A DNA stretch of 42,093 bases, taken from Candidatus Methylomirabilota bacterium (GTDB lineage: Bacteria > Methylomirabilota > Methylomirabilia > Methylomirabilales > 2-02-FULL-66-22). The position numbers and the translations under genes were made by a program. Below the pieces are notes generated by a model. The model had not been told where the DNA came from and searched no databases. It was given only the letters and a program-made list of their open reading frames with translations. Of the stretch, positions 31,658-36,643 are shown in pieces (positions within the stretch are counted from its first letter, which is position 1; every line of letters begins with the position of its first letter). Location of the stretch: the NCBI GenBank assembly GCA_026387775.1, contig JAPLLC010000013.1, forward strand, positions 1-42,093. Direction: 5' to 3'.

Positions 31658-32506
31658 ATGCGGAAGTTTCTTCAGGTATTGGTGAGGCGAAAGGTCGCGC
31701 TGGCCGGGGCCGGCGTCCTCATCCTCATCCTCGTGCTGGCCATCTTCGCGCCGCTGATCGCCCCGTACGATCCGATGGCGTTGAACCCCGTGGATCGCCT
31801 GCAAACCTCGAGCGCCCGCCATTGGTTCGGCACCGATCATTTCGGCAGGGACATCTTCACCCGCATCGTGTACGGCGCCCGCCTGACGCTCATCAGCGGA
31901 TCGGGGGTCGTCCTGTTTTCGATCTCCCTCGGCATCCTGATTGGTTTGCTGTCGGGATACTACCCGCCGTTCAGTCTGGTGGCCATGCGGCTGGTCGACG
32001 TGGTGATGTCGTTTCCTCCCCTGCTGCTGGCATTGGCGCTACTCGCCATCTTCGGCCCGGGGCTCCTGAACGTCATTCTCGCCGTGGGCGTGACCTATCT
32101 GACCCGCACGGCGCGGATCATCTTCGGCCTCACCTTGAAGATCAAGGAGGAGGCCTTCATCGAATCCGTGCGCTCCCTGGGCGCCGACAATCCGCGCATC
32201 ATCGCACGCCACATCCTCCCCAACCTGGTCTCGCCCCTCATCGTGCAGGCCACCTTCACCTTCGCCTTCTCGCTCCTGCAGATGGCGTCCCTGGACTTTC
32301 TGGGAGTGGGGGTGCCGCCCCAGGTGCCGAGCTGGGGGAACATGGTCAGCGAGGGAAGGCTTTACATCACCCGCGCGCCCGGCGTCCTGCTCTTCCCCGG
32401 GATCTTCATCGTCCTCACGGTCCTGGCATTCAATCTGGTCGGGGACGTGCTGCGGGACAACCTGGATCCGCGGTTTCGCGATCAAATCTCCGGGGCAAGG
32501 CAGTAA
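31658..32506 (+). CDS. ABC transporter permease (DppC-like)
   Basis: VLAIFAPLIAPYDPMALNP; WFGTDHFGRDIFTRIVYGAR; SLGADNPRIIARHILPN. Confidence 0.94.
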   Translation: MRKFLQVLVRRKVALAGAGVLILILVLAIFAPLIAPYDPMALNPVDRLQTSSARHWFGTDHFGRDIFTRIVYGARLTLISGSGVVLFSISLGILIGLLSGYYPPFSLVAMRLVDVVMSFPPLLLALALLAIFGPGLLNVILAVGVTYLTRTARIIFGLTLKIKEEAFIESVRSLGADNPRIIARHILPNLVSPLIVQATFTFAFSLLQMASLDFLGVGVPPQVPSWGNMVSEGRLYITRAPGVLLFPGIFIVLTVLAFNLVGDVLRDNLDPRFRDQISGARQ

Positions 32507-32526
32507 GGGGCCATCATAAAATAAAC

Positions 32527-32960
32527 GTAACTGCTCAGGTGGTTAGGGTTCAGGGTTCAGGGAAGAGGGCAATGAACATGGTCCGCGGCCTGAACCCTGG
32601 TGGCTCAGCGCAGAGAGAGGGAATCGTCTCGGCGGTTGGAAGACGTGGGCGTGTACCCAATTGAGGGCGTCACTCGCAGCCGCGGAGAGGCCGCGGAGAC
32701 CGTGCACCATCTGTTCATGCCCCTGACGGGCGATGAGCCCCAAAACACCTACGCGGAATCTCGTGATCGCTATCCGGAGTGTCTCCGGATGCGTAATGGG
32801 ATGGACCGTACACTGGAGACGCAGTCGTTAGCGCCTGATCGCCGCTGGCCCCAATCGTTCGTGCGGGAGGATGCCGAGGACTCTGGTGCCAGCCCTCGTG
32901 GATTTCCTAAACCCTGAACCCCGAACCCTGAACCCCGAACCCTGAGACCTGAGTAGTCAC
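32527..32960. mobile_element. 434-bp MITE-like element with terminal inverted repeats and internal 7-mer arrays
   Basis: GTAACTGCTCAGGT (32527-32540) versus reverse complement of 32947-32960, GTGACTACTCAGGT (12/14); GGGTTCA-type heptads inside both ends; flanks AAATAAAC (32519-32526) and CAATACAC (32961-32968) match 6/8 as a possible target duplication. Confidence 0.65.
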
Positions 32961-32990
32961 CAATACACGTCATGTAGAGGGGCGCCGGCC

Positions 32991-34571
32991 ATGCCTTTTG
33001 ACATTCTCCTGAAGAATGGAAGAATCATCGACGGAAAGGGGAACCCCTGGTTTCGAGGAGACGTCGCCGTCACGGACGGCCGGATCCAGGCAGTGAGGCC
33101 TCGCATCCAGGGGGAAGCGCGCGAAGAACTGGATGTCAGCCAGTATGTCGTGTGCCCAGGATTCATCGATGCGCACACGCATTCCGACTACGTGTTTTTC
33201 GTTGATCCCACAGCGCAAAGCAAGGTGCGTCAGGGGATCACCACCGAGGTGATCGGGAATTGTGGGATGAGCGGGGCCCCCTATTTCGGGGGGGCGAAGG
33301 AGAAATTCACCTCGGCGCCGGGGGGGTTCGTCCCGTTCTGGGAATCCATTCCGGAATACCTTGAAGCGCTTGCAAAACAGCCGAAGACGATCAATCTCGC
33401 GCTGTTGATCGGGCACGGCACCCTCCGCGCGGCCTTCGTGGGTCACGAGGATAGGCCGCCCACGCCTGACGAACTCACCCGGATGAAGGCATGCCTGTCC
33501 GAGGGCCTCCAGGCGGGTGCTGTGGGGCTCTCAACCGGGTTATACTTTGCCCCAGGCTCCTTCGCCTCGGAGGAGGAGCTTGTGGAGCTGGCAGGCATCG
33601 CCGGCCGCCATGGAACGGTCGTGACCAGCCACATCCGGGACGAGGGAAGCCGGTCCGTCGGGTTCATTCCCGCCGTTCTGGAAATCATCCGCATCGGCCG
33701 CAAGGCACGGGTCCCTGTCCAGATCTCGCACATCAAGGCCTTTGGCCCCGACACCTGGCATACATCCGGTGAGGTGTTACGGATACTCGAGGCGGCTCGG
33801 ATTGAAGGGGTCGATGTCACCTGTGATCAGTATCCCTACGACACGACGGGCGGCGGGCTGGCCGCCGATACGCTGCCGTATTCGTTTCAAAGCGGCAAGA
33901 CTCCGAAGCAGATCTCCGAGGCGTTGCGGAAGCCTGACGTCCGGGAAGCCATCAAAGAAGCGGTTGCGACAAACATCCAGAAACGAGGGGGGCCCAGCGT
34001 CCTCACCATTGCGACGTACCCCGCTGACCCCAGGCTGGAAGGCCATACCCTGCAGGAGATATGCGATTCCCGCAAGAAGGATCCGGCCGAGGTGGTGATG
34101 GACATGCTCAGTGAGGGCTATGAAGCCAAGTGGAACTGTAGATCCCTGAGTCAAGAGGACGTGGATGCCTTCCTGAAATATCCGGCGACCATGATCGGCA
34201 GCGACGGTTCCTCTCTTTCTACTGTAGGTCCTCTCTCGCACGGCAACCCGCATCCGAGAAACTTCGGCGCGTTTCCCAGGGTCATCAACGAATATGTGAG
34301 ACAGCGGGCTGTCCTGCGACTCGAAGATGCGATACGGAAGATGACCTCGTTGCCGGCCCAGCGTTTTTCTCTGACGGATCGGGGAACCCTTGCGGAGGGG
34401 ATGTGGGCAGATATCGTGATGCTGGATGTGGACGCCGTTCGAGATGCGACCTTTGAGCATCCCAAGCAGTATCCAACCGGGATCCCCTACGTGATGGTCA
34501 ATGGGGTATGGGTGATCAAGGACAACGAGTTCACCCGGAACCTGCCGGGGGGGCTGGCTCGAAGGAGATGA
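32991..34571 (+). CDS. D-aminoacylase / N-acyl-D-amino-acid deacylase (amidohydrolase)
   Basis: FDILLKNGRIIDGKGNPWFRGDVAVTDGRI; PGFIDAHTHSDYVF; VTSHIRDEG; MIGSDGSSLS. Confidence 0.94.
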   Translation: MPFDILLKNGRIIDGKGNPWFRGDVAVTDGRIQAVRPRIQGEAREELDVSQYVVCPGFIDAHTHSDYVFFVDPTAQSKVRQGITTEVIGNCGMSGAPYFGGAKEKFTSAPGGFVPFWESIPEYLEALAKQPKTINLALLIGHGTLRAAFVGHEDRPPTPDELTRMKACLSEGLQAGAVGLSTGLYFAPGSFASEEELVELAGIAGRHGTVVTSHIRDEGSRSVGFIPAVLEIIRIGRKARVPVQISHIKAFGPDTWHTSGEVLRILEAARIEGVDVTCDQYPYDTTGGGLAADTLPYSFQSGKTPKQISEALRKPDVREAIKEAVATNIQKRGGPSVLTIATYPADPRLEGHTLQEICDSRKKDPAEVVMDMLSEGYEAKWNCRSLSQEDVDAFLKYPATMIGSDGSSLSTVGPLSHGNPHPRNFGAFPRVINEYVRQRAVLRLEDAIRKMTSLPAQRFSLTDRGTLAEGMWADIVMLDVDAVRDATFEHPKQYPTGIPYVMVNGVWVIKDNEFTRNLPGGLARRR

Positions 34572-34972: not shown

Positions 34973-36496
34973 ATGCGAATCGCGACGCGCGTAACCCTCC
35001 TGCTGCTGCTTGCCGTCGCCTTGGTAATGGCCGGATTTGCCATCCTTCGCAATCACCAGGAACGGCAGCGGCTGGTCGGTGAGGTACAACAGGAAGCCCT
35101 GGTCCTCGCCAGCGCGATCAAGCTGGTGGTGGAGCACGCCCGGCGAGACCGTCGGCCGCAGGACATCCAGCAGATGCTCGCCGAGATGGTGCAAGAACAA
35201 TATCCCATCGACCGGGTTCGGATCTATGACCGCCGGCTGGAAGAAACCGCCAGCGCGAGCTCCGAGGCGGCGGCTCCCCCCGGCGTGCCCCGGGAGGAGA
35301 TCGCCTCCGTCCTGGAGAGCGGTCGAAACCTCGTGCGGTATCTCGACAGTCCCACGCGGCCCGTTGTGTATGTCATCCTGCCCTTGCGCGGTCGTCGAGG
35401 AGAGGCCGTCGGCGTCCTGGAGGTCGTCCAGGCGGCCTCGCGGGTCCGGCGGGAAATCTCCGAGGCCGCCCGCGAGAACATCCTGCGGATCAGTCTTCTC
35501 AGCCTTACCATTGTTCTGGTCATCTGGATGGCGGCTCGCGTGAGCATCCGCCGGCCACTGGACCGGCTGGTTCAGGCGACGCTGGCCTTTGGCCGCGGGG
35601 AGCTGGATCAACGCATCTCTCACCGACGGCGGGATGAGATCGGACAGCTGGCAACGGCGTTCAATCGCATGGCGGAAGAGCTTCAGCGGACCCAGGGAGA
35701 ACTCGTCGAGCAGGGGCAGACCCGGCTGGAGCTGGAGCGCCAGCTTCAACAGGGGCAGAAGCTGGCGGCGGTCGGCCGACTGGCGAGCGAGGTGGCGCAC
35801 GAGGTCGGGACCCCTCTCAATATCATCTCGGGACGCGCGGAGAGCATCCGGAAGGGGCTTCCCGCCGACCATCCGGCGGAACGACACGTCGCCACCATTC
35901 TTCGGCAGACCGAGCGAATCACGGGGAGTCTCCGCGAGCTCCTGGACTACACTCGACCTCGGCGACCCGCGGTCCGCCCTCATCCCGTCTGCCCGCTCCT
36001 GAGCCGGCTCGTCGAGCTGCTGGAGCCGTTGGCGCAGCGGCGTGGAGTCGAGCTGAGAATGCAGGTCGCCGCAGGCCTCCTGCCTATCCAGGCGGACGCG
36101 GATCTGTTCCAGCAGGCTCTCATGAATCTCGTGACGAACGCCCTCGATGCGACTCCGCCCGGCGGTCGGGTGCAGATCGTCGCAGCCGTCGACTCCGAGC
36201 CGGGCCCGGGGGCAGCCGAAGCCAGGCCGTCGGTCCGGCGTGGGGTCAGACCCGATCCCTGTGTGACCATTCTGGTGGAGGATGCGGGCGGGGGGATTCC
36301 GGCGCAACGCCTCGAGAGGATACTTGAGCCGTTCTTCTCCACGAAGGCTCCCGGTCGAGGAACCGGCCTCGGTCTCTCCATCGTCGAAGACATCGTCCGT
36401 GCCCATGGGGGCGCCATCGAGATCGCGAGTGCGGAGGGCCGCGGGACGACGGTTCTGCTGCACTGGCCCGCAGCGCCCGAGTCGGGAGAGGAATGA
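34973..36496 (+). CDS. Sensor histidine kinase (TM-HAMP-HisKA-HATPase)
   Basis: VGRLASEVAHEVGTPLNIISGRAE H-box; NALDATPPGGRV N-box; GRGTGLGLSIV G-box. Confidence 0.95.
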   Translation: MRIATRVTLLLLLAVALVMAGFAILRNHQERQRLVGEVQQEALVLASAIKLVVEHARRDRRPQDIQQMLAEMVQEQYPIDRVRIYDRRLEETASASSEAAAPPGVPREEIASVLESGRNLVRYLDSPTRPVVYVILPLRGRRGEAVGVLEVVQAASRVRREISEAARENILRISLLSLTIVLVIWMAARVSIRRPLDRLVQATLAFGRGELDQRISHRRRDEIGQLATAFNRMAEELQRTQGELVEQGQTRLELERQLQQGQKLAAVGRLASEVAHEVGTPLNIISGRAESIRKGLPADHPAERHVATILRQTERITGSLRELLDYTRPRRPAVRPHPVCPLLSRLVELLEPLAQRRGVELRMQVAAGLLPIQADADLFQQALMNLVTNALDATPPGGRVQIVAAVDSEPGPGAAEARPSVRRGVRPDPCVTILVEDAGGGIPAQRLERILEPFFSTKAPGRGTGLGLSIVEDIVRAHGGAIEIASAEGRGTTVLLHWPAAPESGEE

Positions 36497-36597
36497 CCAA
36501 TGCAAATTCCCAATGACCAATGACCAATGACCAATCCGAAACAGCTCGCCTAGCGAGCGTACTACCATTGGTCATTGGGAATTGGCCATTGGTTATT
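36492..36597. repeat. About 106-bp inverted-repeat element with CCAATGA heptads
   Basis: AATGACCAATGCAAATTCCCAATGACCAAT (36492-36521) followed by two more GACCAAT units, versus reverse complement of 36567-36597, AATAACCAATGGCCAATTCCCAATGACCAAT; central GCTCGC-CTA-GCGAGC hairpin (36544-36558). Confidence 0.75.
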
Positions 36598-36643
36598 GAC
36601 GCTCGAGACGCCGCGATCCGCGCGGGGGGGGGAAGGAGGGGAG

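What the first reader, a model, noticed from the sequence alone, without database searches (positions are those of the whole stretch)
32519..32968. 434-bp non-autonomous element with IS66-like termini and telomere-like heptad arrays
Ends GTAACTGCTCAGGT / GTGACTACTCAGGT are inverted (12/14). The flanking 8-mers AAATAAAC and CAATACAC match 6/8, compatible with an 8-bp target duplication; GTAA-type ends and 8-bp duplications are known for IS66-family elements. Just inside each end are period-7 arrays (GGGTTCA twice-plus on the left; GGGTTCG/GGGTTCA units over 32906-32945 on the right), and in the middle a perfect ATCCGGAG-TGT-CTCCGGAT hairpin (32772-32790). No transposase is encoded.
Basis: partly seen in the sequence, partly recalled or inferred. 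Interest (0 to 1): 0.62.

Follow-up and report, generated by a model that had tools for sequence, protein, structure and literature searches.

The report
IS66-type miniature transposon with heptad arms
The 434-base stretch is a real non-autonomous "hitch-hiker" transposon: its ends match a single-gene branch of the IS66 transposons, at least five shorter relatives sit elsewhere in the same genome with 8-base target duplications, and one insertion can be seen as an empty versus a filled site.

Summary
The window element (32527-32960) is the longest copy of a small MITE family in its genome. Five other copies were found (C153, C146, C261, C131, C27). Three have perfect 8-bp target duplications and one has 7/8. 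The C146 copy interrupts a dispersed repeat whose other copies show the uninterrupted (empty) site. Three copies at unrelated loci share the same internal deletion of about 217 bp, so the deleted form itself transposed. The ends are those of the ISBst12 (single-ORF) group of the IS66 family. The published active element ISDge4 has ends GTGACTACTCAGCA/GTAACTGCTCAGCA and an 8-bp repeat. Six full-length single-ORF IS66 elements delimited here have GTWAC-type ends with perfect 8-bp duplications. No IS66 transposase was found in the assembled genome, so mobilisation in trans is inferred. The GGGTTCA heptads lie inside the ends of every copy, but related genomes are full of such heptads without IS66 ends: they are a separate repeat type carried by the element. 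Elements with the same ends and an 8-bp duplication, but unrelated cores, occur in many phyla; one core is a four-helix-bundle gene, also present in this genome. Ordinary in kind, well supported, mildly novel.

The parts
32519..32526 (.). left target-site duplication (AAATAAAC), decayed
   Evidence: 6/8 match to 32961-32968; sister copies have 8/8, 8/8, 8/8 and 7/8 duplications in the same position
32527..32540 (+). left terminal inverted repeat GTAACTGCTCAGGT
   Evidence: exact at C27, C146 and C153 copies; 12/14 to one end of ISDge4
32541..32562 (+). left subterminal heptad arm (GGTTCAG units)
   Evidence: TRF row 32541-32562; inverted pairing with the right arm, 25 nt at 84%
32563..32594 (+). 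conserved left body (about AAGAGGGCAATGAACATGGTCCGCGGCCTGAA)
   Evidence: shared by all six copies
32595..32811 (+). internal segment of about 217 bp absent from C153/C146/C261; its first bases survive in C27, so it is probably ancestral and the other copies deletion forms; contains the 32772-32790 hairpin
   Evidence: alignment of copies; no match to it in 60 relatives
32772..32790 (.). perfect ATCCGGAG-TGT-CTCCGGAT hairpin inside the internal segment
   Evidence: sequence
32812..32905 (+). conserved right body (TGGAGACGCAG...GGATTTCC)
   Evidence: 86-89% identical to C146, C261 and C153
32906..32946 (-). right subterminal heptad arm (GGGTTCA/GGGTTCG read on the - strand)
   Evidence: TRF rows 32906-32952 and 32910-32945
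32947..32960 (-). right terminal inverted repeat GTGACTACTCAGGT
   Evidence: exact at the C153 copy; 12/14 to the other end of ISDge4
32961..32968 (.). right target-site duplication (CAATACAC), decayed
   Evidence: as for the left one

Best explanation
A MITE: a non-autonomous DNA transposon whose 14-bp ends are recognised in trans by a single-ORF (ISBst12-group) IS66-family TnpC transposase. The transposase joins the ends to a target cut with an 8-bp stagger, giving an 8-bp duplication. SHOWN by sequence: ends, copies at unrelated loci, 8-bp duplications, an empty site, and spread of an internally deleted form. INFERRED: that an ISBst12-type TnpC does the work, because none is in the assembled genome. 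The heptads are cargo placed as inverted arms just inside the ends. They probably lengthen the inverted repeats and grow or shrink by slippage. A role as extra transposase contacts is possible but untested.
For: Six family members with shared ends and body in one genome. Perfect TSDs CAGGTGAG (C153), GGGAAATC (C146) and CGAAGATC (C261), and 7/8 at C131. Empty site: C146 flanks joined with one TSD copy align without a gap to four uninterrupted copies of a host repeat. The identical internal deletion in C153, C146 and C261 at different sites means transposition after the deletion. Ends match the ISBst12 group: ISDge4 TIRs GTGACTACTCAGCA/GTAACTGCTCAGCA, DR CCTCGATG (PMC12898284). Full-length IS66 elements with a single TnpC of about 490 aa, ends such as GTAACTACTTAGGT, GTAACTATTCAGCC and GTAACTATTCAGCG, and 8/8 TSDs (L176, L301-L305). 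In the Nitrospirae MAG G076, TnpC genes are followed directly by the end GTAACTATTCAGGT, and that genome also holds a MITE with these ends (L134).
Against: No IS66 transposase detected in the own genome (PF03050; TnpC protein, which had no positive control), so the partner is missing or unassembled. The window copy's own TSD is only 6/8. No empty site at the window locus: dppC of two congeners is not followed by the amidohydrolase gene. The body shows no trace of TnpC, so descent from a full-length IS is not shown.
Confidence: 0.92

Rival explanations
1. A chance or drift-made intergenic sequence with heptad slippage and accidental inverted ends, never transposed.
For: Heptad arrays without IS66 ends are common in related genomes; the window copy's flanking match is only 6/8.
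Against: Six exact end occurrences against 0 for the control pattern, three perfect 8-bp duplications, and an empty site.
Confidence: 0.02
2. A MITE of another transposon family with 8-bp duplications, not mobilised by IS66.
For: No IS66 gene in the assembled genome; several IS families make 8-bp duplications (general knowledge; IS6 and IS66 members in PMC3281130).
Against: The 14-bp ends match ISBst12-group ends at 12/14, including the left/right difference published for ISDge4. TnpC-bearing IS66 elements carry the same kind of ends.
Confidence: 0.05
3. The heptad arrays are the functional core (for example subterminal transposase-binding repeats or a regulatory repeat) rather than passive cargo.
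For: All copies in this genome have heptads just inside the ends; 4 of 14 duplication-verified elements from other genomes have period-7 arrays against 1.6% of random stretches.
Against: 10 of those 14 elements lack them at that threshold; the autonomous IS66 ends displayed here do not show them; relatives carry heptads without the ends.
Confidence: 0.12

Closest known systems
ISBst12 group of the IS66 family (ISDge4, ISGka4)
   Same: 14-bp ends of GTRACTRCTCAG type, 8-bp target duplication, two slightly different ends (ISDge4)
   Different: The window element has no transposase gene, is 434 bp instead of about 1.5-1.6 kb, and shares only the ends
Bacterial MITEs in general (e.g. MITEAba12, MITEPsy1)
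   Same: Short, non-coding, terminal inverted repeats, multiple copies
   Different: IS66-type ends; subterminal inverted heptad arms; low copy number; no partner IS in the assembly
BrickBuilt MITE of Porphyromonas gingivalis (PMC4596501)
   Same: A MITE that contains a tandem repeat
   Different: 23-nt repeat and different ends; here 7-nt units arranged as inverted arms
Heptad/STRR-type intergenic repeats (e.g. TAACTGA in Beggiatoaceae, PMC4679880)
   Same: Period-7 intergenic arrays spread over unrelated lineages
   Different: That paper does not mention MITEs, transposases or IS66; here the arrays sit inside a transposon

Membership tests
MITE (non-autonomous DNA transposon) | terminal inverted repeats | tested here: met
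   12/14 inverted ends; shared by sister copies
MITE (non-autonomous DNA transposon) | target-site duplication of fixed length | tested here: met
   8/8 at three copies, 7/8 at one, 6/8 in the window
MITE (non-autonomous DNA transposon) | several copies at unrelated sites, no transposase gene | tested here: met
MITE (non-autonomous DNA transposon) | empty site without the element | tested here: met
   C146 copy against uninterrupted copies of the target repeat; not available for the window locus
IS66 family, ISBst12 group | GTAA/GTGA-type ends as in ISDge4 and related elements | tested here: met
   12/14 to each ISDge4 end
IS66 family, ISBst12 group | 8-bp target duplication | tested here: met
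IS66 family, ISBst12 group | encodes a single IS66 TnpC transposase | tested here: not met
   no IS66 coding sequence in the element or the genome; hence related by its ends, not itself an IS66 insertion sequence
IS66 family, ISBst12 group | mobilised by a TnpC in trans | not testable with these tools
   needs a transposition assay

The most novel reading that the evidence does not exclude
ISBst12-type ends serve as a general, phylum-crossing carrier. The same 14-bp ends with 8-bp duplications have repeatedly enclosed unrelated cores (heptad arrays, common palindromic intergenic repeats, a four-helix-bundle protein gene), so part of the unexplained intergenic repeat load of many uncultured bacteria was spread by trans-acting IS66 transposases.
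Probability: 0.35. Interest if true: 0.6.

Novelty: new member of a known kind. Interest (0 to 1): 0.42.

Why it matters
It is a clean case of an IS66/ISBst12-type MITE. No paper in the searched open-access library holds both ISBst12 and MITE, and a 2024 review of prokaryotic MITEs does not mention IS66; ISfinder itself could not be searched. It gives a route by which intergenic heptad arrays, and in one case a small protein gene, can be carried between sites and perhaps between phyla.

Tried and rejected
Rfam found nothing. Orthologous empty site at the window locus and at C153: flanks are not contiguous in congeners, so uninformative. IS66 transposase in the own genome: none; in the order only two genomes have one, and no such ends were found around them. 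A general link of four-helix-bundle genes (PF05635) with these ends: only the C87 copy of 30 loci inspected, rejected as a rule. A general link of GGGTTCA heptads with these ends: rejected, 26 heptad loci of relatives show no convincing end within 600 bp. Plasmid and phage collections: only heptad matches or none. Most of the 119 stretches with the exact 14-mer in GTDB contigs are probably chance: only 14 distinct elements passed the inverted-end plus duplication test (random-start control 3 of 2380).

Full report
Observation. The window holds exactly what was described: ends at 32527-32540 and 32947-32960 (12/14 inverted), flanking 8-mers matching 6/8, heptad arms just inside both ends, a perfect hairpin at 32772-32790, and no transposase. 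It lies between an OppC-type permease gene (31658-32506) and an amidohydrolase gene (32991-34571). The pattern GTRACTRCTCAGGT occurs six times in the 4.46-Mb genome and the reversed control never.

A family of copies. A search of the own genome found further copies, read: C153:36777-36986 (210 bp, duplication CAGGTGAG 8/8), C146:20725-20961 (237 bp, GGGAAATC 8/8), C261:3676-3891 (216 bp, CGAAGATC 8/8), C131:11583-11692 (110 bp, CTCAGAAG/CTCGGAAG 7/8; the C100 contig end is the same locus) and a truncated copy at C27, from 3292 downwards. The alignment shows that C153, C146 and C261 lack the same internal segment of about 217 bp that the window copy has. C27 keeps its first bases (CCTGGTGGCTCAG). 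The window copy is therefore probably nearest to the ancestral form, and the deleted form spread to three sites. C131 is a further deletion form.

Empty site. The C146 copy lies inside a dispersed host repeat. Joining its flanks with one copy of GGGAAATC gives a sequence that aligns without a gap at the junction to four uninterrupted copies of that repeat (C82 twice, C188, C132). This is direct evidence of insertion. At the window locus and at C153 the congeners have different gene neighbours, so no empty site can be read there.

Which transposase. The ends are those of the ISBst12 group of IS66, which has a single TnpC gene. ISDge4 of Deinococcus geothermalis, seen to move, has TIRs GTGACTACTCAGCA and GTAACTGCTCAGCA and an 8-bp repeat (PMC12898284). 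Each window end matches one of these at 12/14, including the G/A differences between left and right. Independently, full-length IS66 elements were delimited here. L176 is 1639 bp with a 490-aa TnpC, PF03050 E = 1.8e-53, ends GTAACTATTCAGCC and duplication GCCACGGC. L301-L305 on plasmids have perfect 8-bp duplications and ends such as GTAACTACTTAGGT, GTAACTATTCAGCG, GTAACTATTCAGCC and GTTACTGCCCAGGC; a seventh candidate, L300, gave no clear ends. In a Nitrospirae MAG the end GTAACTATTCAGGT follows TnpC directly. Other IS66 elements also make 8-bp duplications (PMC3281130). No IS66 gene was found in the window's assembly (PF03050; TnpC protein, no positive control). Trans-mobilisation is thus inferred; the partner was lost, is unassembled, or was transient.

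The heptads. In this genome every copy has GGTTCA-type heptads inside the ends; where both ends are intact they lie in inverted orientation, so they act as an extension of the inverted repeats (z = -3.9 for folding). Of the genome's GGTTCA arrays most lie in such elements; three loci (C30, C261:932, C27:3122) do not. In related genomes such arrays are common and lie outside any IS66 end. They are therefore a separate repeat type, carried here as cargo. Elsewhere 4 of 14 verified elements have period-7 arrays against 1.6% of random stretches. The association is real but not defining.

Wider picture. They come from Cyanobacteria, Chloroflexi, Elusimicrobia, Nitrospirae, Verrucomicrobia, Armatimonadetes, Desulfobacterota and others, with unrelated cores. 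One (L120, Ca. Desulfaltia) carries a four-helix-bundle (23S-IVP type) ORF between heptads. The window's genome has a counterpart at C87:17544-18016, 86% identical at the DNA level.

Verdict. A well-supported ISBst12/IS66-type MITE family. It is ordinary in kind. The subterminal heptad arms and the broad set of cores under the same ends are the points of interest.

Noticed in passing
G000:C87:17544-18016 (L222) and L120: A 473/474-bp element with IS66-type ends and heptad arms carrying a four-helix-bundle (PF05635) gene, 86% identical DNA in two distant lineages; at C87 the duplication is CATTTTG plus one shifted base.
   Followed up: partly
G000:C146:20500-21030, C82, C188, C132: The MITE at C146 is nested in another dispersed repeat of about 260 bp with ends AAGGTACCGGACACCT/AGGTGTCCGGTACCT, many copies in this genome.
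   Followed up: partly
window 36492-36598: Two more period-7 arrays (AATGACC, CATTGGT units) between a sensor kinase gene and a response-regulator gene, without IS66 ends.
   Followed up: no
L117, L184, L192: Near-palindromic units of about 50 bp with IS66-type ends at both sides (GTAACTGCTCAGGTAGCCGCCC...GGGCGGCTACCTGAGCAGTTAC), some next to decayed IS66 fragments.
   Followed up: no
L154, L134, L104, L076: Sequences that look like common intergenic repeats (such as CGTCATTCCGGCGAAAGCCGGAATCC) sit as cores between IS66-type ends with 7/8 or 8/8 duplications.
   Followed up: partly
G021:C11:1613-1990 and G015:C206:3667-4029: PF05635 genes of relatives lie directly beside GGGTTCA heptad arrays without IS66 ends.
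   Followed up: no
G000:C131 end and G000:C100 end: The two contig ends are the same locus in opposite orientation, overlapping across the MITE, i.e. an unjoined assembly overlap.
   Followed up: no
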